A stretch of 26,322 nucleotides of DNA, taken from positions 1-26,322 of IMG/VR virus record IMGVR_UViG_3300007554_000022. One strand, given 5' to 3'. Shown in pieces: positions 2,765 to 24,716 of the stretch. Source of the DNA: a virus. A program made the position numbers and the translations under genes. Position 1 is the first letter of the stretch; every line of letters begins with the position of its first letter. The notes beneath the pieces were generated by a model. That model searched no databases. It had not been told where the DNA came from and was given only the letters and a program-made list of their open reading frames with translations.

Positions 2765-4597
2765 ATGGAAAATAATAATAAACAATATACTGTTTGGCAG
2801 AGGTTAACACAAGCCTTTGGTCCTAATGCGTTATTAAATCAGGACTACCCAACTTATAAATTAGATAAGAAAGAATTACTTAGAACCACGTCTAAGCAAG
2901 AGTATGAGATGGAGAAACTCCAAGCTCAACAAACTTATTACTTAGCGAACAACTGGACTAAGATTGAAAGTAATTTATATACACAAGCCGTTTATTATGA
3001 ACCAACTCGTTTGGCATCATTTTATGACTATGAATCTATGGAATATACCCCTGAGATATCTGCGGCGTTAGATATCTACGGTGAAGAATCCACAACTGCT
3101 GACCAAAATGGTTACATGTTACAGATTTATTCTGAATCAAAACGAATCAAATCAATTCTTGTTGATTTATTTAACAACGTATTAGATATTAACACCAACT
3201 TACCTATGTGGACAAGAAACACTTGTAAGTATGGTGATAACTTTGTTTACTTGAAACTCGACGCTGAGAAAGGTGTTGTAGGTTCAATGCAATTACCAAA
3301 CATAGAGATTGAACGTCTTGAAAGAGGTATGGCCGCTAAGTCAGCGAATGTTGACGAACCGAAAGAAAACAAAGGTCTACGTTTTAAATGGAAAGCCAAG
3401 GATATGGAATTTAATTCTTGGGAAATTGCTCACTTTAGATTGTTAGGTGATGATAGAAAACTTCCTTATGGTACGTCTATGTTAGAAAAGGCAAGACGTA
3501 TTTGGAAACAACTTTTATTATCTGAAGACGCGATGTTGATTTATAGAACATCAAGAGCACCTGAAAGAAGGGTTTTCAAGGTGTATGTTGGAAACATGGA
3601 CGACAAAGATGTTGAACCATATGTACAACGTGTCGCTAACAAATTCAAAAGAGACCAAGTGGTTGACTCAAAGACTGGTAATGTCGATATGAGATTTAAC
3701 CAAATGGCTGTTGACCAAGATTATTTTATCCCTGTTAGAGACCCTGCAGCACCAAGTCCGATTGACACATTACCAGGTGCACAGAACCTAGCGGAGATTG
3801 CCGACATCGAATACATCCAAAAGAAATTATTAACAGCTCTTCGTGTCCCTAAGGCGTTCTTAGGTTTTGAAGAAGTTGTTGGTGATGGTAAGAACTTATC
3901 CCTTATGGATATTCGATTTGCGAGAACAATTAATAGAATCCAAAAATCGATGATTGCCGAGTTAAACAAAATCGCAATCATTCACCTATTCTTATTAGGT
4001 TTTGAGGATGAGTTATCAAACTTTACATTAGCTTTAACAAACCCATCTACACAGGCGGATTTATTAAAGATTGATGTATGGAAAGAAAAATTATTAGCTT
4101 ATAAAGATGCTGTTACCGCAATCGAAGGTATTGCACCTGTATCTGTAACATGGGCTAAAAAACATATTTTAGGTTTCTCTGATGAAGAGATTAAACTTGA
4201 CCTACAACAACAACGTATTGAGAAAGCCGTTGGTGCTGAATTAACTAACACTGCAACAATCATTTCTCATACAGGTGTATTTGACAACATTGACAAACTT
4301 TACGGTTCTAAATCAGGTTCTACTGAGAACGCAGGAGGAGCCGGAGCACCACCACCTCCAGGTGGAGACATGGGGGGTGACTTAGGGGGTGACTTAGGGG
4401 GTGGAGCACCACCGCCGCCACCACCATCAGAAGGTGGAGGTCCTGAATTAGCTCCTGAATCAACAGAACGAGATAACTTAAATATTTTATTAGAATCTGA
4501 CGGTTTATTTGAGGAAGATTCCTTTATTGATTTATCTAAAGCAAGAAATTCTTTAGGTATTATGGAACAACAATTAAGTAAACTTCTAAAAGATTGA
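2765..4597 (+). CDS. 20: Portal vertex protein (T4 gp20 family)
   Basis: This is the dodecameric portal through which DNA is packaged and to which the neck and tail attach. The 610-residue product has the length and layout of gp20. It has an N-terminal region with a tyrosine-rich YEPTRLASFYDYESMEY segment (about 79-95), a central clip/stem region with DPAAPSPIDTLPGAQN (about 328-343), and the following IEYIQKKLLTALRVPKAFLG helix region, characteristic of the family. Residues about 520-565 form a low-complexity Gly/Pro/Asp linker encoded by a 12-bp tandem repeat, followed by a 40-residue helical tail. The linker and tail go beyond what I would expect in T4. The gene ends in TGA, which overlaps the next promoter motif. 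Confidence 0.93.
   Translation: MENNNKQYTVWQRLTQAFGPNALLNQDYPTYKLDKKELLRTTSKQEYEMEKLQAQQTYYLANNWTKIESNLYTQAVYYEPTRLASFYDYESMEYTPEISAALDIYGEESTTADQNGYMLQIYSESKRIKSILVDLFNNVLDINTNLPMWTRNTCKYGDNFVYLKLDAEKGVVGSMQLPNIEIERLERGMAAKSANVDEPKENKGLRFKWKAKDMEFNSWEIAHFRLLGDDRKLPYGTSMLEKARRIWKQLLLSEDAMLIYRTSRAPERRVFKVYVGNMDDKDVEPYVQRVANKFKRDQVVDSKTGNVDMRFNQMAVDQDYFIPVRDPAAPSPIDTLPGAQNLAEIADIEYIQKKLLTALRVPKAFLGFEEVVGDGKNLSLMDIRFARTINRIQKSMIAELNKIAIIHLFLLGFEDELSNFTLALTNPSTQADLLKIDVWKEKLLAYKDAVTAIEGIAPVSVTWAKKHILGFSDEEIKLDLQQQRIEKAVGAELTNTATIISHTGVFDNIDKLYGSKSGSTENAGGAGAPPPPGGDMGGDLGGDLGGGAPPPPPPSEGGGPELAPESTERDNLNILLESDGLFEEDSFIDLSKARNSLGIMEQQLSKLLKD
4373..4403 (+). repeat. 12-bp tandem repeat in the portal gene
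   Basis: The unit GGGGGTGACTTA occurs at 4373-4384 and 4385-4396, with a partial third copy to 4403. It encodes repeated Gly-Gly-Asp-Leu. It is flanked by two copies of GGAGCACCACC (near 4343 and 4402), which encode the proline runs. Confidence 0.85.
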
Positions 4598-4608
4598 TAT
4601 TTATTATA
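4596..4608 (+). promoter_or_regulatory. Putative late promoter overlapping the portal stop codon
   Basis: GATATTTATTATA starts on the second base of the portal TGA stop (4595-4597) and lies 21 nt before the ATG at 4617. Exact match to the core GATATTTAT. Confidence 0.7.
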
Positions 4609-4616
4609 AAAACACG

Positions 4617-5336
4617 ATGATGAACTTTGGAATTATTAAATCAAGAATAGAACACACTCTTTTAGAATCTTACAAAAAAGGTACTTTTAAAGAGGATATG
4701 AAGAACTTTAAAAAATTAGTTTTAGAGAATAAAAACATCTCTAAATTATATTACCTATACGATGATTTATCATCAAACAAAGGACTTCATTCAGAGATAG
4801 TTAATGATTACATTAATGAAAGTGTTACCATTTACGAAAACACTTTAAATAAAGTTACAGGTAACGATATTAATAAAATTCTTGGTTGGGTAGGTTCCCC
4901 AAAAATTGATAACAGCTACGAAGTTATTGATAATTTGTTCAGTACAAATATCTTAACAATCGAGAACAGAATCCAAAGTAAAAAAATCATTTCTGAAACA
5001 TTAAAGAAAAAACCTAACGTAGTTAAGGAGTCAGTAAACATTCCTTTAAGTACTATGGTTAATGTTGCAAACAAAACAATTTCTAATTACATAGATTCAT
5101 TAAACGAATCTGAAAAAGCTGAACTTACTAAATTATTATCTGAAAGTGATGATAAATTAGAGAGTGAGTTTAATGTTGTTAAAGAAAGTGTTATTGGTAA
5201 ATTAACAGAAATGAAAAATTCTGAATCTGACAAATCAACTCAATCAAGAATTGAGGAGACTTTAAATAAGGTAATTTCGGAAAAGTACGACAAATTATCG
5301 TACTTCAAATTGAAGAATCTTAACGAGAATATTTAA
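4617..5336 (+). CDS. Candidate prohead core/head protein in the gp67/gp68 slot
   Basis: 239 residues, almost entirely helical, Lys/Glu/Ser/Asn-rich, no cysteine and no membrane segment. I do not recognise a family by sequence. In T4 the genes between portal (20) and protease (21) encode the prohead core proteins gp67 and gp68, and this gene occupies that interval. The N-terminus (NFGIIKSRIEHTLLE) is a short amphipathic helix ending in L-L-E at residues 15-17, which fits the L/I-x-E cleavage rule of T4-type prohead proteases. A core-protein role is inference from position, helicity and that site. Two adjacent ATGs (4617, 4620) could serve as start. The stop TAA overlaps the stop of the reverse-strand bS21 gene in the shared TTAA. 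Confidence 0.75.
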   Translation: MMNFGIIKSRIEHTLLESYKKGTFKEDMKNFKKLVLENKNISKLYYLYDDLSSNKGLHSEIVNDYINESVTIYENTLNKVTGNDINKILGWVGSPKIDNSYEVIDNLFSTNILTIENRIQSKKIISETLKKKPNVVKESVNIPLSTMVNVANKTISNYIDSLNESEKAELTKLLSESDDKLESEFNVVKESVIGKLTEMKNSESDKSTQSRIEETLNKVISEKYDKLSYFKLKNLNENI

Positions 5337-5527
5337 TCGTTATTTGATTTAAATTTCTTTTGGACGTATTTTGCCTTCATCAGTTGTTGTCTTTTCTTAA
5401 CTGATTTCTTAACAAATTCCTTACGGTTGTTCAATTCTGAACTCTGTCTTGTCTTTATCACCTTGCTTTTATATATTTTCAAGGCTTTCTCTATACTTGT
5501 CGATTTTTCTACTTTTACAATTAACAT
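5333..5527 (-). CDS. rpsU: Ribosomal protein bS21 homologue, phage-encoded
   Basis: The 64-residue, highly basic product matches the bS21 pattern throughout. It has a short N-terminal strand MLIVKVEKS, a first helix SIEKALKIYKSK (11-22), then ELNNRKEFVKKS (31-42), then KKRQQLMKAKYVQKK (44-58). Length matches Bacteroidota bS21. bS21 sits on the 30S platform beside the anti-Shine-Dalgarno tail of 16S rRNA. In Bacteroidota ribosomes it helps sequester that tail, and from memory a Tyr near position 54 takes part. Tyr54 is present here (KAKY). It is the only reverse-strand gene inside the head cassette, convergent with the preceding gene and divergent from the next. No Shine-Dalgarno precedes its ATG, unlike what is reported for host rpsU genes in this phylum. 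Phage bS21 genes are known from metagenomic phages. Confidence 0.85.
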   Translation of the reverse strand: MLIVKVEKSTSIEKALKIYKSKVIKTRQSSELNNRKEFVKKSVKKRQQLMKAKYVQKKFKSNND

Positions 5528-5550
5528 ACTTAGTTATATTAGGTTTTTGA

Positions 5551-5580
5551 CTCTATAAGTAAATATTCGTATATTTTTAA
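5551..5580. promoter_or_regulatory. Divergent AT-rich promoter-like region with a palindrome
   Basis: Between the reverse-strand bS21 gene and the forward gene, AAATAT (5561-5566) and ATATTT (5571-5576) form an inverted pair around TCGT. Read on the minus strand the left half gives GAATATTTACTTATAG toward bS21. Read on the plus strand the right half gives GTATATTTTTAAAAAA toward 5590. Both resemble degenerate copies of the GATATTTATATAA motif. Confidence 0.4.
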
Positions 5581-5608
5581 AAAATAAACATGGAAATTAT
5601 GAGTATTA

Positions 5609-6079
5609 ATGAAAAAAGGGAAAACCTCTCACATTCATGGGTTTAATTTTGCAAAAGTTACCTATGGAACAGTTGACTCGGTTAATTTAAAGTCAATTTA
5701 TCTAAACATTCAAACTTGGGTGGAACCTATTAAAGAATGTGATAATTGGACTAGGACAGTTCTCAATATGAGCAGAGCCATAAAACACTCCGTATATGAA
5801 TCCGTTAACACAGACTTGTTTGATAACAAATTTATAGTTGATTTAGATTTACGTTCAAGTGGTATTAGTGAAGGTAAAAAATCATTTATGAATCTTGAAG
5901 TTAACTTTTATTTAATCCCCGATGATGTGGATTTTAAATCAAAAGAAATCAAAGACTCACTAAAAAGTATCACACAAAGGATTGTTGATGAGAATTTTAT
6001 AGGGAACGACTACTTTAATTTTTATTTAACTAAAAAAGGTAAAACAAAAGAAGATTCACTACAATTAGAGAATGTTTGA
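5609..6079 (+). CDS. Unknown protein in the head cassette, start uncertain
   Basis: 156 residues from the ATG at 5609, with alternating hydrophobic patterns suggesting beta structure (for example FIVDLDLRSS, MNLEVNFYLIP) and a C-terminal helical part. I do not recognise a family. An ATG at 5590 sits better placed behind the A-rich leader and promoter-like element, but it opens a different frame that ends at 5646 after 18 codons. That frame would join the long frame if the six-A run at 5612-5617 were one base shorter. The real N-terminus may therefore be MEIMSINEK followed by GKTSHIHG, through a sequencing indel, a genuine frameshift, or slippage. Otherwise translation simply begins at 5609. 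A head-related role is inferred only from its place before the protease gene. Its TGA stop overlaps the next promoter motif. Confidence 0.7.
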   Translation: MKKGKTSHIHGFNFAKVTYGTVDSVNLKSIYLNIQTWVEPIKECDNWTRTVLNMSRAIKHSVYESVNTDLFDNKFIVDLDLRSSGISEGKKSFMNLEVNFYLIPDDVDFKSKEIKDSLKSITQRIVDENFIGNDYFNFYLTKKGKTKEDSLQLENV

Positions 6080-6087
6080 TATTTATT
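6078..6087 (+). promoter_or_regulatory. Putative late promoter before the prohead protease gene
   Basis: GATATTTATT starts on the second base of the upstream TGA stop (6077-6079) and lies 25 nt before the ATG at 6103. Exact core match. Confidence 0.7.
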
Positions 6088-6102: not shown

Positions 6103-6828
6103 ATGAGTTTAAGAATTTTAAATCCTACTGAGACTGGTAAAGGTATTTTAGTAGAATACGATGCAGGATATATATCGCCAACTGAGGAGCATAACGCAAC
6201 TCTGATTAGAGAATCTAAAGGTATGTTAGACCACTCAAAGCCGTTTGAATTTTACGCGGTTTTACAGAAGTATAACACACCAAACAGAAACGGAAGAATA
6301 TACCCTGAACGTATTCTAAAAAGAGAAGCTGAGAACTATAAAAAAATGATTGAGAAAGGAGTTGCTCTTTCAGAGTTAAACCACCCTGAATCATCGTTAA
6401 TTGACCTTGATAGAGTATCTCACGCGATTACGGAGATATGGTGGGAAGGACCTGTGTTAATGGGTAAATTAAAACTATTAACAAGTCCAGGTTTCCACGA
6501 GAGAGGTATAGTATCTACCAAAGGTGATATGGCGGCAAACTACTTAAGACAGGGGGTAACATTGGGTATCTCATCAAGAGGGGTTGGGTCACTTAAAAAA
6601 GTTGGTGAACAGAATGAAGTACAAGACGATTTTGAATTAATATGTTTTGACTTAGTATCATCACCATCAACACCAGGGGCATATTTATTCAGTCAACCTG
6701 AAGAAAGATTTAATTTTGAAGAAAACCTTGAAGAAGAACAAAAAATGAAAGTACAAAGACAAGTTGGTGAAAATGGTAACAAATCACTTGACTTAATGAA
6801 AAAGTTGAACGATTATTTAGGGTATTAA
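6103..6828 (+). CDS. 21: Prohead core protease (T4 gp21 family, serine protease)
   Basis: The T4 gp21 protease matures the prohead by cutting scaffold, core, internal and capsid proteins after L/I-x-E sites. The 241-residue product shows the family hallmarks: NRNGRIYPE (about 61-69), the catalytic-His motif ELNHPE with His94, and the nucleophile motif GISSRG with Ser157/Ser158, in a herpes-protease-like order. A conserved acidic stretch with FDLVSSPSTPGA (182-193) follows. Its own N-terminus contains L16-V17-E18, a possible self-cleavage site. It lies between the core-protein slot and the scaffold gene, as in T4. A 69-codon gene follows after 12 nt and probably shares its transcript up to the terminator near 7084. 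Confidence 0.93.
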   Translation: MSLRILNPTETGKGILVEYDAGYISPTEEHNATLIRESKGMLDHSKPFEFYAVLQKYNTPNRNGRIYPERILKREAENYKKMIEKGVALSELNHPESSLIDLDRVSHAITEIWWEGPVLMGKLKLLTSPGFHERGIVSTKGDMAANYLRQGVTLGISSRGVGSLKKVGEQNEVQDDFELICFDLVSSPSTPGAYLFSQPEERFNFEENLEEEQKMKVQRQVGENGNKSLDLMKKLNDYLGY

Positions 6829-6840
6829 AAAATTTAAATT

Positions 6841-7050
6841 ATGGACGAAAAATATTTCATTGCAAAAGTAACCACTGATTTGGTTGACGAGAACTCGGGC
6901 AAAATCAAGAAACTAAGAGAAGAGAAGTTGGTTAGAGGATACAATCCTACTGACGTTGAAGCTAAAGTAACTAAAGTTTACGAAAACTACACTCAGGATT
7001 GGAGAATCACCGCAATTGTTGAAAGTAAAATTGATGAGGTGATAGATTAA
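6841..7050 (+). CDS. 69-aa small protein, possibly DUF4494-like
   Basis: The product starts MDEKYFIAKVTTDLVDENSGK and continues with a KKLREEKLVRGYNPTDVEAKV segment. The layout is a strand, a Lys-rich turn, then a helix that begins with a Thr-Asp-x-Glu-Ala-like motif. That resembles the small DUF4494 proteins seen in Bacteroidota and their phages, but I have only a remembered pattern to rely on. The gene starts 12 nt after the protease stop, is preceded by an A-rich leader and no clear motif copy, and is followed by a strong terminator. It is therefore probably the last gene of a protease-containing transcript. Function unknown. Confidence 0.7.
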   Translation: MDEKYFIAKVTTDLVDENSGKIKKLREEKLVRGYNPTDVEAKVTKVYENYTQDWRITAIVESKIDEVID

Positions 7051-7078: not shown

Positions 7079-7107
7079 TAAAAGGGGTCAATTCGACCCC
7101 TTTTTTT
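7079..7107 (+). terminator. Intrinsic terminator after the protease transcript
   Basis: Stem GGGGTC (7084-7089) pairs with GACCCC (7095-7100) around a five-base loop. It is extended by A-T pairs and followed by a seven-T run at 7101-7107. Confidence 0.9.
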
Positions 7108-7192: not shown

Positions 7193-7205
7193 GATATTTA
7201 TATAA
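7193..7205 (+). promoter_or_regulatory. Putative late promoter before the scaffold/capsid genes
   Basis: GATATTTATATAA, the full consensus, 32 nt before the scaffold ATG at 7225. It is likely to drive scaffold and major capsid protein together, because no motif copy lies between those two genes. Confidence 0.75.
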
Positions 7206-7224: not shown

Positions 7225-8685
7225 ATGGCGAAAGAAAAATCTTTAGTTGAGGAGGCAATCATCCAAATGAAAAATTTGGAAGAAGCTGTTGCCGAGAATG
7301 CAAAAGGAATACTTGCTTCTACTATGAAGGAAGAAATCAAAGAACTAGTAAAAGAATCTCTTACTGAACAAGAGGATGAGGTTGAAGTAGATGCTGAAAT
7401 GGACGAACCTGAAATGATGGAACCTGAAATGGGTGACGACGAAGAAGGTATGGAAATGGATGCTGATAACATCGACGATATGGGTGACGAAGAAGAAGAC
7501 ACCATTGACCTTACAGGTGAAGAAGACGATGACGAAATCTTACGAGTATTTAGTTTGATGGGACCCGAAGATAATATCGTGGTTACCAAAGACGAATCTG
7601 GAAACATCAATCTTAAAGATTCTGAAAAAGAATACATGATTGTTGGAGAAGGTGATGACGAGTTTGAGTTTGACATGGACGAGTTAGACGAAGAATGGAA
7701 CGAGTCTGACGAATTAGACATGATGGAAGATGATAATATTGACGATATCGTATCTAAAGTTTTTGCTGACGATGAAGAAGAGTCTGAAGACGAAGAATTT
7801 GAGTTTGAAGATGAATTTGAAATGGAAGAGCAAGGAGAAGATGATATGGGTGTTGAAGATGATGATATCATTTATGAAATCGAATTTGATTCTGAAGAAG
7901 GTTCTGACGAAGAACTTGACGAAATGTATGACGACGAACTTGAAGAAGAATACGAAGAAGGTGAAGACGTTATGGAGTCTAAAATGACCGTAAAACCTAA
8001 GGGTGTCGGAATGGGTTCACCAAACAAAAAAATATATTCAAACAAACCTAACATGGAGGGTGGCTTTAAAACTGTTAAGAAAAAAGCTGACAAGACTATG
8101 GGTACAGGTAAAGCTAAGTTTGAATACAAAGAAGGAGAGAACCTTGACGGTAAAATGAAAAACGTTAAAAAGGTCGAGACAAAAGAAGCATCAAGAACTT
8201 TAGGTGCTGGTTCTAACTTTAGAAAGGGTGGTTTACCAAAACCAAGAGCTCACTCTAAAGCAAACACCGCGATTAAAGAAAATGTAGATGCTACAGAATT
8301 ACACGTTCTTAGAGAAAAAAATGAAGAGTACAGAAAAGCACTTAACGTGTTTAGAAATAAATTAAACGAAGTAGCAGTATTCAATTCTAATTTGGCTTAC
8401 GCAACTCGTTTGTTTACTGAACATTCAACATCTAAACAAGAGAAAATTAACATCTTGAGAAGATTTGATAGTGTTGAGACTCTTAAAGAATCTAAGAATC
8501 TTTACAAGTCAATCAAAGAAGAACTTTCAACTACGACTAATAACAATCAATCTATTAATGAATCAATTGAACGTAAAATTGAAAACGTACAATCTACAGG
8601 TTCATCAATTAATTTGATTGAGTCTAAAACTTATGAAAATCCTCAATTCTTAAGAATGAAAGACTTAATGGCTAAATTAAAATAA
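7225..8685 (+). CDS. 22: Prohead scaffold/core protein (T4 gp22-like)
   Basis: 486 residues. The first ~45 form Lys/Glu-rich helices ending in L46-T47-E48-Q49, an L-x-E site for the prohead protease. Residues about 48-255 are extremely acidic low complexity (Asp/Glu runs), and about 255-345 are Lys/Gly-rich. The C-terminal ~140 residues are helical and carry the scaffold-like pattern KLNEVAVFNSNLAYATRLF followed by QEKINILRRFDSVETLKESK. That last pattern is what I recognise from T4-like scaffold proteins encoded just before gp23. T4 gp22 is shorter (about 270 aa); the extra length comes from the acidic block. The scaffold would fill the prohead core and be degraded before packaging. A serine-rich open frame antisense to the acidic block is a composition shadow. 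Confidence 0.87.
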   Translation: MAKEKSLVEEAIIQMKNLEEAVAENAKGILASTMKEEIKELVKESLTEQEDEVEVDAEMDEPEMMEPEMGDDEEGMEMDADNIDDMGDEEEDTIDLTGEEDDDEILRVFSLMGPEDNIVVTKDESGNINLKDSEKEYMIVGEGDDEFEFDMDELDEEWNESDELDMMEDDNIDDIVSKVFADDEEESEDEEFEFEDEFEMEEQGEDDMGVEDDDIIYEIEFDSEEGSDEELDEMYDDELEEEYEEGEDVMESKMTVKPKGVGMGSPNKKIYSNKPNMEGGFKTVKKKADKTMGTGKAKFEYKEGENLDGKMKNVKKVETKEASRTLGAGSNFRKGGLPKPRAHSKANTAIKENVDATELHVLREKNEEYRKALNVFRNKLNEVAVFNSNLAYATRLFTEHSTSKQEKINILRRFDSVETLKESKNLYKSIKEELSTTTNNNQSINESIERKIENVQSTGSSINLIESKTYENPQFLRMKDLMAKLK

Positions 8686-22088: not shown

Positions 22089-22838
22089 TTATTTAACCAT
22101 CTTTTGTATTAGACCTGTATACATAACCTTATACCTCTTCATTGACCCCCTAATTTCTTTGGTGGTTAAATTAGTCATTTCACGTAATGTCAATAAGATA
22201 ATATTTTTATTAAATTTGTTATTGTCATTACCAATAAAGATTTGTTCATAGTCTTTAAAAATATCATATAAAGCGTGTCCTAACTTTAACTCATTTTCAT
22301 TTAATGGTTCCGTTTCTAAGAAATTATCTAACTCTTCTAAAAACCTTTTAATCACTTTTTCGGAATCTAAAGTATCACCGTCAATATGATATGCAAAATC
22401 TTCACTATTTTCTAAATTTGAAGATATGTCTTCGTAGGATATTTTACGATTAATTTCTTTTTGGTCTTTGATGATTTGACCCATCAAATAGTTCTTACAT
22501 ATTGTACCAAAGTAAGAGTAAGCCTTCTTTTCTTTAGAAGGCTTAAACTTTTCTATTTTGGTCATTAAGAATGAGTGAGTATCCACATGTATCTCTTCAA
22601 AGTCCATGTCTTTTCGGTACAATTTGTATCTTCTAATAATTGAAGATATCATTTTGTCTAAAGGTTTCCTCAAAAACTCATTATAAATTTTATTTCGTTC
22701 TTCGTAAGTGGTTGCTTCTAAAAATCTAATAACAGCTTGTTCCTCGGCAACGTCGAAATAATTTACTTGTTTTGGTTTTCTACCTTTCTTTTTTAACTCA
22801 ACATTTGTTTCACTTGTTAAATTATTACTTTCAATCAT
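22089..22838 (-). CDS. 55: Late transcription sigma factor (T4 gp55-like)
   Basis: The product is 249 residues; T4 gp55 is 185. The central part follows sigma region 2. RKPLDKMISSIIRRYKLY (57-74) begins it. DFEEIHVDTHSFLMTKIEKF (79-98) and AYSYFGTICKNYLMGQI (106-122) are the aromatic F/Y-S-Y-F-x-x-I-x-x-N-Y/F-L motif of core-binding and promoter-opening helices. The last 32 residues (TLREMTNLTTKEIRGSMKRY onward) look like a helix-turn-helix, reminiscent of region 4. T4 gp55 lacks a proper region 4 and relies on gp33 and the sliding clamp. The N-terminal 25 residues are basic (KKKGRKPK). It would direct RNA polymerase to the late promoters, which I suggest are the GATATTTAT sites. Confidence 0.8.
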   Translation of the reverse strand: MIESNNLTSETNVELKKKGRKPKQVNYFDVAEEQAVIRFLEATTYEERNKIYNEFLRKPLDKMISSIIRRYKLYRKDMDFEEIHVDTHSFLMTKIEKFKPSKEKKAYSYFGTICKNYLMGQIIKDQKEINRKISYEDISSNLENSEDFAYHIDGDTLDSEKVIKRFLEELDNFLETEPLNENELKLGHALYDIFKDYEQIFIGNDNNKFNKNIILLTLREMTNLTTKEIRGSMKRYKVMYTGLIQKMVK

Positions 22839-23650
22839 TAGACCTGTTGAGGTTCAAACTTTATGGCTCTGTCATGAATAAAGAAATATTCTTTTTTAGC
22901 CGAGTCAATCCAGAATTTAACCTCTTCTTCAGTTAATCTGTCTTCACCATTTTTGTAGTTCCAAAAAATAGAACCATCACGTAAGTTAGTGTGTTTATAA
23001 CCAATACGAGGAATTGACATTACTCTGATTGAGTTGTGAGTTAATCTTAAAAGTAATTCGTATCCGAATGTAAGTTTGAATGATGGTTTAAATAAACCAA
23101 AGTCTAAAAACGCCGACTTCTTAATTACCATTCCTGATGTTTGGAAGTTTTGGTAATCGTGTAAAGTTTCGTTGGTTAAGATACCCATTTCAGGTGTAAA
23201 GTTCGCGGCAAATGTCGCTTCGTTTGTAAAACCTGCGAATTTACCTTGAGCGTCAGTATCAACCACGATAGGTAAAAATACTTGAGTATCAGGATACGCT
23301 TTTGAATACATATCAACATTTTTAAACCAAATACTTGAGTACTCATCATCAATCTCAAAAAATGAAATCCACTCTGATTTAGCCTCTCTAGCACCATGAT
23401 TAATTTGTGCGGAATAATTGGGTTCTTTGTCCCAAGAAATCATTCTCACATTTAAATCACCAAAGTCAAAACCTTTAATGTAATCAACCAAGTATGTTTC
23501 AGGTGTGTGGACAATAATCAACTCACTGAAACCCATTTTTTGAATCTTTAACGATTCAATACATTTTTCAAAATATTCAGTAAACCCGTTAGATTTTCCT
23601 GATTTAATCGGTAAAATAACCGAAACGTCAAATTTGTTTGTACTTTCCAT
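22838..23650 (-). CDS. Glycosyltransferase, GT-A / family 2-like
   Basis: 270 residues from the ATG at 23650, preferred over a TTG at 23692 that would overlap the upstream gene. The start FDVSVILPIKSGK is the first strand of a GT-A fold. The segment KSEWISFFEIDDEYS (91-105) is the metal/sugar-nucleotide site with D101-D102 in place of a canonical D-x-D. Family-typical downstream parts include FQTSGMVIKKSAFLDFGLF and GYELLLRLTH. It would transfer a sugar from an activated donor to DNA, a virion protein or a host glycan; the acceptor cannot be read. It is followed by a GT-B enzyme gene 4 nt upstream on the same strand, and overlaps the sigma gene by one base (TAATG). Confidence 0.82.
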   Translation of the reverse strand: MESTNKFDVSVILPIKSGKSNGFTEYFEKCIESLKIQKMGFSELIIVHTPETYLVDYIKGFDFGDLNVRMISWDKEPNYSAQINHGAREAKSEWISFFEIDDEYSSIWFKNVDMYSKAYPDTQVFLPIVVDTDAQGKFAGFTNEATFAANFTPEMGILTNETLHDYQNFQTSGMVIKKSAFLDFGLFKPSFKLTFGYELLLRLTHNSIRVMSIPRIGYKHTNLRDGSIFWNYKNGEDRLTEEEVKFWIDSAKKEYFFIHDRAIKFEPQQV

Positions 23651-23654
23651 AATA

Positions 23655-24716
23655 TTATTCAATTGTTTGTAGTTTAGATAGTTGTTCTTCAAAAGATTCT
23701 ACTCGTTTATTAATGTAACCCTCAAATAGAGAAACTGCCACTTTTTCAAACTCTTCTTTTGTTGATTGATTCTCAACAGTTTTTAACATCTCATCAATCA
23801 TTGTTGGGTTGATGTTATCCTCTAACCAATTTTGGACGAAGTCTGCAACAAAATCAACTATCTGTACTTTGTTGTTAATCCAAATACCGTTATCCTCATT
23901 AATCCAAGTAGGGACCATGTTAGGTGCTAAACCCAAAACAGGAACACCTGACTTCATTGCTTCTAATGGGAATGTACCATAAGAACTTGTCTCATCTACC
24001 CAAACGGCCAAACAAGACTCTCTAAGTGCGTTTCCAAATTCTTTTTCAGATAAACCTCTCATATCTCTAAAAGTAACCCACCTATATTGGGGGAACTTAA
24101 TGTAGAAAGACTTAATCATATTGATAGCATCTCTTTGTTCTCTTGTATGAACAGCGATGATTGGTTTCGCGGGTAACTCTCCTTTGTAAAAATTATCTGA
24201 GATAAAAGGTTTCAAAATATCATAAGAAACATTCTTCATAATCTCTTCAAGATATTCTTGTTGTCTTTCCGATGTTGTAATACATTTAAAGAAACCTAAT
24301 TGTGACCAAGTTTGACCTGGTTGTAATGTTTCTAAAATGTGGTCATAAGCCTGACTCAATACAATTTTTCCACAAGGTAATTTAGAAATTTGTGACATCA
24401 CAAAACCATATAACTCAGGGATTACAATTAAGTCTTCAGGTGAAACCTCAAGATTTTGACCCTCAATTGCTTTATGTGGTAGTGTTGTCATATATTCCTC
24501 ACCCAACCAAGTTGAAACTCCAAAATAATCTGGTTTCTCATGTAAGATAATTGGGTTATACCCCGCGTTTAAAAGTGCCATACCCAAGTTGTAGATGTAA
24601 GCAACTGATGCTTTGGCGTTACCTCTTGTATCCTGAACAATAAGATAAATTCTTGAAGTTTTATCTTTCATGTTCTGAATAGATTTTTCTAATTTAGAAA
24701 TTTGCTCTTGATTCAT
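23655..24716 (-). CDS. Glycosyltransferase, GT-B / GT4-like
   Basis: 353 residues with two Rossmann-like halves. The N-terminal half begins RIYLIVQDTRGNAKASVAYI (22-41). The C-terminal half contains PIIAVHTREQRDA (185-197) and the donor-binding segment VDETSSYGTFPLEAMKSGVP (240-259), with the two glutamates of the E-x-n-E pattern at E242 and E252. It lies in the same operon as a GT-A enzyme and a NeuD-like acyltransferase, suggesting a small glycan-modification pathway. Substrate unknown. No signal peptide or membrane anchor, so cytoplasmic. Confidence 0.82.
   Translation of the reverse strand: MNQEQISKLEKSIQNMKDKTSRIYLIVQDTRGNAKASVAYIYNLGMALLNAGYNPIILHEKPDYFGVSTWLGEEYMTTLPHKAIEGQNLEVSPEDLIVIPELYGFVMSQISKLPCGKIVLSQAYDHILETLQPGQTWSQLGFFKCITTSERQQEYLEEIMKNVSYDILKPFISDNFYKGELPAKPIIAVHTREQRDAINMIKSFYIKFPQYRWVTFRDMRGLSEKEFGNALRESCLAVWVDETSSYGTFPLEAMKSGVPVLGLAPNMVPTWINEDNGIWINNKVQIVDFVADFVQNWLEDNINPTMIDEMLKTVENQSTKEEFEKVAVSLFEGYINKRVESFEEQLSKLQTIE

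What the first reader, a model, noticed from the sequence alone, without database searches (positions are those of the whole stretch)
5333..5527. Ribosomal protein bS21 gene embedded antisense inside the head cassette
A bS21 homologue with Bacteroidota-like length and Tyr54 sits on the opposite strand between portal/core and protease genes. In Bacteroidota, bS21 helps hide the anti-Shine-Dalgarno tail, and host rpsU is reported to use a Shine-Dalgarno for self-control. This copy has none. A phage bS21 free of that control could displace host bS21 and change which mRNAs are translated. Head-cassette genes here start behind A-rich leaders, so the protein could favour them. Its location among late genes suggests late synthesis or packaging.
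Basis: partly seen in the sequence, partly recalled or inferred. Interest (0 to 1): 0.75.

Follow-up and report, generated by a model that had tools for sequence, protein, structure and literature searches.

The report
Phage copy of ribosomal protein bS21
A virus of Bacteroidota bacteria carries its own copy of a small ribosomal protein, on the opposite strand inside its capsid genes; this arrangement was published in 2022, but the missing Shine-Dalgarno signal and the late-type promoter box reported here may help explain how the copy stays switched on late in infection.

Summary
ORF 5333-5527(-) encodes a 64-aa bS21 (Pfam PF01165, 35.1 bits against a cut-off of 27; best solved relative Flavobacterium johnsoniae bS21, 7jil) with Tyr54, inside the head cassette of a T4-like Bacteroidota phage contig. 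It is not chance: all 70 related loci with enough DNA carry it, antisense, dN/dS about 0.1. It is not new either. Chen et al. 2022 (PMC9723584) described this antisense bS21, its Tyr54, late expression and the packaging idea; McNutt et al. 2023 supplied the Shine-Dalgarno (SD) autoregulation idea. The window is one more member.

What I add: none of 57 distinct phage upstream regions has an SD match of 7 nt or more, against 23 of 94 host copies; the nine nearest host copies all have strong SDs. A late-promoter-like box (ATATTTATA) precedes head genes and, in variable form, bS21. Residues 21, 23, 24, 27 and 28 differ almost uniformly from hosts. Head-gene leaders are A-rich but look like ordinary host leaders, so preferential translation has no sequence support here. 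Best reading: a late-made replacement that escapes the host's feedback. Displacement, mRNA selectivity and packaging remain untested.

The parts
5333..5527 (-). bS21 gene (64 aa, Tyr54, phage residues S21 V23 I24 R27 Q28)
   Evidence: Pfam PF01165 and PDB 7jil matches; orthologue tree; dN/dS and residue table
5333..5336 (.). TTAA: overlapping stop codons of X and bS21 (convergent genes, no terminator-like hairpin between)
   Evidence: sequence; same spacing in 136 of 141 loci; terminator scan
5559..5568 (-). GAATATTTAC, weak late-box-like element about 39 nt before the bS21 ATG; stronger forms in relatives
   Evidence: in the window itself below the 9/10 threshold, so only suggestive
5528..5558 (-). 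bS21 leader, A-rich, no Shine-Dalgarno
5545..5578 (+). TTTTGAC-N18-TATATTTTT, promoter-like element for Y, divergent from bS21; related sequence in most relatives
4617..5336 (+). X, all-helical protein of unknown function, convergent with bS21
   Evidence: conserved beside bS21 in relatives; model pLDDT 85 but pTM 0.53; no family
5609..6079 (+). Y, conserved alpha/beta protein of unknown function, divergent from bS21
   Evidence: alignment; model pLDDT 88; no clear PDB match; one uncharacterised viral structural match
4596..4605 (+). GATATTTATT late-type box before X
   Evidence: 97% of X upstream regions at 9/10 or better
6078..6087 (+). GATATTTATT late-type box before protease
   Evidence: 46% at 9/10, 94% at 8/10
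7193..7202 (+). GATATTTATA late-type box before the scaffold-like gene 7225-8685
   Evidence: 94%
2765..4597 (+). portal protein gp20
   Evidence: PF07230 E 6e-77
6103..6828 (+). prohead protease gp21
   Evidence: PF03420 E 8e-23
22089..22838 (-). possible late sigma factor (gp55-like)
   Evidence: weak: phrog_234 E 0.0023; 2.8e-4 and 6e-5 in two 300-kb relatives

Best explanation
This is a phage version of Bacteroidota bS21, made mainly late in infection, that enters host 30S subunits and keeps them competent for SD-less mRNAs while the phage makes capsid protein. Its Tyr54 end should hold the 16S tail in the closed, SD-blind state as the host protein does. Because its own mRNA lacks an SD, it is not subject to the host rpsU feedback (in which bS21-free ribosomes read the SD on rpsU); by filling vacant subunits it would also keep host rpsU translation low. 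Shown here: identity, conservation, Tyr/His54, absence of SD, fixed residues at 21-28, late-type boxes in the cassette and in variable form before bS21. Inferred: incorporation, feedback escape, repression of host rpsU.
For: bS21 family matches. Phage copies form one clade (100/99 support) nested in Flavobacteriales sequences. Position 54 is Tyr or His in all 131 64-aa phage loci. None of 57 distinct phage upstream regions has a 7-nt SD match, host 23/94 (Fisher p 8e-6, not corrected for relatedness); nine host copies nearest the phage clade all have SD duplexes of -13 to -16 kcal/mol, no phage copy is below -9.8. Phage genes show SDs at shuffle level. A late-type box is enriched about 15-fold upstream of genes in a 322-kb relative and stands before X, scaffold, portal and protease genes; a perfect copy lies 27-29 nt before bS21 in the outer clade. 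Published: late metatranscriptome signal (PMC9723584); a different phage bS21 enters E. coli ribosomes (PMC6375957); bS21 loss or Y54A raises translation of SD-bearing rpsU (PMC9976891).
Against: No ribosome or infection data for this phage. The late box before bS21 is weak in the window itself, and only 30% of phage bS21 upstream regions reach 9/10. The Pelagibacter phage bS21 left only about 5% activity in E. coli ribosomes (PMC6375957). Cultured Flavobacterium phage immuto has the cassette without bS21, so the gene is dispensable for this way of life. Many sampled Bacteroidia rpsU genes lack a strong SD, so feedback escape need not be the general reason.
Confidence: 0.5

Rival explanations
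1. Selective translation: the phage-specific residues in the helix-1/loop segment (21-28) make ribosomes prefer phage late mRNAs over host mRNAs.
For: S21, V23/I23, I24, R27, Q28 are nearly fixed in phage copies and rare in hosts; Chen et al. noted the same region (PMC9723584); Francisella bS21 homologues change the proteome (PMC9578407).
Against: Phage leaders show no feature beyond the ordinary host pattern, so no sequence basis for a preference was found. The residues may reflect ancestry: phage copies group with divergent host paralogues, though this is unresolved.
Confidence: 0.2
2. Plain supply: the phage adds bS21 so that every 30S stays complete during heavy late synthesis, without changing selectivity or escaping a feedback.
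For: bS21 is loosely bound and exchangeable (PMC6375957); purifying selection and Tyr54 retained.
Against: Does not explain the uniform change at residues 21-28 or the loss of the SD relative to the nearest hosts.
Confidence: 0.2
3. The protein is packaged in the virion and acts at the start of the next infection.
For: Place among head genes; suggested in PMC9723584.
Against: No evidence here; the sequence holds no L/I-x-E site of the T4 prohead-protease kind (motif from own knowledge); genomic place alone does not show packaging.
Confidence: 0.05
4. The locus matters mainly as antisense RNA: convergent transcription of bS21 and X regulates one of them.
For: Stop codons overlap with fixed spacing in 136 of 141 loci and no terminator-like hairpin lies between.
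Against: The protein is under strong purifying selection; fixed spacing can be simple compaction and inheritance.
Confidence: 0.05

Closest known systems
bS21-encoding Bacteroidetes phages of Chen et al. 2022 (PMC9723584)
   Same: bS21 on the reverse strand in the TerL-portal-protease-MCP region, two hypothetical neighbours, Tyr54 or other aromatic, changes around residues 21-28, Bacteroidetes-type bS21; relatives of the window have genomes near 300 kb
   Different: The window is another IMG/VR contig; assignment to clades a-e was not done. SD absence on the gene and late-type promoter boxes do not appear in the text searched.
F. johnsoniae bS21 / rpsU (PDB 7jil; PMC9976891)
   Same: 64 aa, Tyr54, alignable over residues 1-57
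   Different: Phage residues at 21-28, divergent C-terminal tail, no SD upstream
Pelagibacter phage HTVC008M bS21 (PMC6375957)
   Same: Phage bS21, shown to enter E. coli ribosomes
   Different: Alphaproteobacterial type, different phage; translation was impaired in E. coli
Phage Mel-JY01 RpsU (PP395634.1)
   Same: bS21 inside a related T4-like head cassette
   Different: Sense strand, between protease and scaffold region, different sequence
Flavobacterium phage immuto (NC_055915.1)
   Same: T4-like head cassette in a cultured Flavobacterium phage
   Different: No bS21 annotated between portal and protease, and no bS21 match to this query in the record

Membership tests
bS21 (Pfam PF01165) | Score above the curated cut-off over most of the profile | tested here: met
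   35.1 bits, cut-off 27, positions 2-54 of 55
bS21 equivalog (NCBIfam TIGR00030) | Score above 28.95 bits | tested here: not met
   21.2 bits; a divergent bS21 homologue, not filed under this equivalog
Bacteroidia-type bS21 | Tyr54, the residue that stacks on A1534 of 16S rRNA | tested here: met
   Residue present; the contact itself not tested
Bacteroidia-type bS21 | Incorporation in the 30S platform | not testable with these tools
   needs ribosome proteomics or cryo-EM
bS21-phages of Chen et al. 2022 | bS21 antisense inside the TerL-portal-protease-MCP region | tested here: met
bS21-phages of Chen et al. 2022 | Aromatic residue at 54 and change at residues 21, 23 and 28 | tested here: met
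bS21-phages of Chen et al. 2022 | Late expression | not testable with these tools
   only indirect: late-type boxes
Feedback-regulated rpsU of Flavobacteriales | Extended SD upstream | tested here: not met

The most novel reading that the evidence does not exclude
A one-way takeover: the phage bS21 gene lacks the SD, so its synthesis never slows, while its Tyr54 keeps ribosomes blind to the SD on host rpsU, so the host cannot resupply its own bS21 and the ribosome pool converts to the phage form late in infection.
Probability: 0.22. Interest if true: 0.65.

Novelty: new member of a known kind. Interest (0 to 1): 0.33.

Why it matters
bS21 is the commonest ribosomal protein found in viruses and its benefit to them is unknown. 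The SD contrast between phage and nearest host copies turns escape from autoregulation into a direct test in a genetically tractable host (F. johnsoniae). The late-type boxes give a sequence basis for late timing. The fixed residues 21-28 name the positions to swap.

Tried and rejected
An unsupervised motif search drifted to A-rich leaders; replaced by counts and consensus scoring. A degenerate pattern for the Y promoter found nothing in the window. Searching genome contigs with the phage protein found only one endosymbiont copy, so hosts were sampled by family search. The idea that phage bS21 descends from divergent host paralogues rather than main rpsU: the best tree supports it (96/91), but the alternative is not rejected (AU p 0.50). 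Reading the upstream ATG in some clades as an N-terminal extension: rejected, since it is TTG, out of frame or followed by a stop in relatives. The weak VMAP-M14 match is below its cut-off and taken as chance. Fold search of Y gave no clear solved relative; X was not fold-searched because its pTM was low. No structure of the bS21 itself was predicted, as the two jobs went to its neighbours.

Full report
What is there. The window is a 26,322-base virus record. ORF 5333-5527 on the minus strand encodes 64 aa that match Pfam PF01165 above its cut-off and, among solved structures, best F. johnsoniae bS21 (7jil, E 1.6e-8). It scores below the NCBIfam equivalog cut-off, so it is a divergent bS21. 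Tyr54 is present. Neighbours are terminase, portal, X, Y, prohead protease, a DUF4494-like gene, an acidic scaffold-like gene and a Gp23 capsid protein.

More than chance. Searching viral contigs with the protein gave 578 candidate places. Of 80 loci fetched with the protease, all 70 with at least 900 nt upstream carry bS21; these are the nearest relatives, so this says it is fixed in the group, not beyond it. X and Y are on the opposite strand in every locus (151 and 153; the two searches overlap in loci). The overlapping X/bS21 stop codons have the same spacing in 136 of 141. Median dN/dS is 0.11 over 224 pairs.

Already known. Chen et al. 2022 (PMC9723584) describe the same arrangement, the aromatic residue 54, divergent residues near 21-28, Bacteroidetes hosts, late metatranscriptome signal, ribosome substitution, preferential translation and possible packaging. 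McNutt et al. 2023 (PMC9976891) show that bS21 loss or Y54A raises translation of the SD-bearing rpsU, and discuss these phages. The passages of Chen et al. that my term search returned do not mention strand-specific reads; if the RNA reads were unstranded, signal over bS21 and over the opposite-strand neighbours cannot be fully separated. I could not check the libraries.

Shine-Dalgarno. I compared the 19 nt upstream of bS21 starts with the 16S tail. Matches of 7 nt or more: phage 0 of 57 distinct regions; hosts of one Bacteroidota order 14 of 64 and of the class 9 of 30. By duplex energy, nine host copies nearest the phage clade are all -13 to -16 kcal/mol, no phage copy is below -9.8, and the window is +2.0. 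The 57 are related, so the Fisher value (8e-6) overstates independence; one loss on the phage branch would explain them. Many hosts also lack a strong SD, so the contrast holds for the nearest Flavobacteriales, not for all Bacteroidia.

Leaders. In 30 window genes and 302 predicted genes of a 322-kb relative (G235), SD matches are at shuffle level, and A peaks at -3 and about -11 to -13. PMC9976891 reports the same kind of pattern for host genes. So the A-rich leaders are real but do not mark phage mRNA.

Promoters. In G235, ATATTTAT occurs upstream of genes about 15 times more than expected, and TATCTTTG, like the Bacteroidota -7 element (own knowledge: TAnnTTTG), about 14 times. The first resembles the reverse complement of the T4 late box (own knowledge). 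Scoring KATATTTATA at 9/10 or better: X 97%, scaffold 94%, portal 54%, protease 46%, against 3-8% in shuffles; terminase and capsid genes near zero, Y 15% against 7%. bS21 reaches 30% against 7%: perfect at -27 to -29 in the outer clade (L124, L134, L141, L152, L155, L161), TATATTTAC-like around -32 to -54 in the window's clade, and GATAT(A/T)TGTA around -14 in another, which would give a nearly leaderless mRNA. In the window the box is weak. That these are late promoters is inferred from the genes they precede and from a weak late-sigma match. Y has a different, host-like promoter that diverges from bS21.

Protein differences. All 131 64-aa phage loci (near-copies included) have I24, R27 and Q28; 129 have S21 and 119 V23. 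Hosts have mostly R/K21, F/Y23, D/E24, G27, V/T28. Position 54 is Tyr (116) or His (15).

Origin. Phage copies form one clade, 100/99, inside Flavobacteriales. The nearest sequences in the best tree are divergent extra host bS21 copies, three of which sit next to a sigma-70-like gene, but grouping with main Flavobacteriaceae copies is not rejected (AU p 0.50). With 64 columns the tree cannot settle this.

Neighbours. Y is a confident alpha/beta model without a clear solved relative and with one uncharacterised viral match; it has no relative in the phage collection by sequence. X is helical. Which one is the published bS21_CN could not be told. Cultured Flavobacterium phage immuto has the cassette without bS21; Mel-JY01 has a bS21 in the cassette on the sense strand.

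Verdict. Confirmed and known, with three useful additions: SD absence across the group, late-type boxes, and fixed residues. Mechanism steps beyond the sequence are inference.

Noticed in passing
L234, L235, L237 (1.4-kb stretches of Flavobacteriales genomes): Extra, divergent host bS21 copies lie directly next to a sigma-70-like gene, mostly without a strong SD; one genome (G096) holds three bS21 copies. Possible host ribosome heterogeneity.
   Followed up: partly
window 5590-5612 and the same place in relatives: Before the Y start there is another ATG, usually 10 nt upstream and out of frame, in most relatives; in the window it would open a short overlapping reading frame of about 18 codons.
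   Followed up: no
window 7080-7104 +: Strong terminator-like hairpin between the 69-aa DUF4494-like gene and the scaffold-like gene.
   Followed up: no
window 6841-7050 +: 69-aa protein matches DUF4494 (PF14902) just above its cut-off.
   Followed up: no
G235 record (L268-L284): Two distinct upstream box classes, ATATTTATA and TATCTTTG, suggest separate phage-type and host-type promoter sets across the 322-kb genome.
   Followed up: partly
window 22838-24716 -: Two glycosyltransferase-like genes next to the possible late sigma gene.
   Followed up: no
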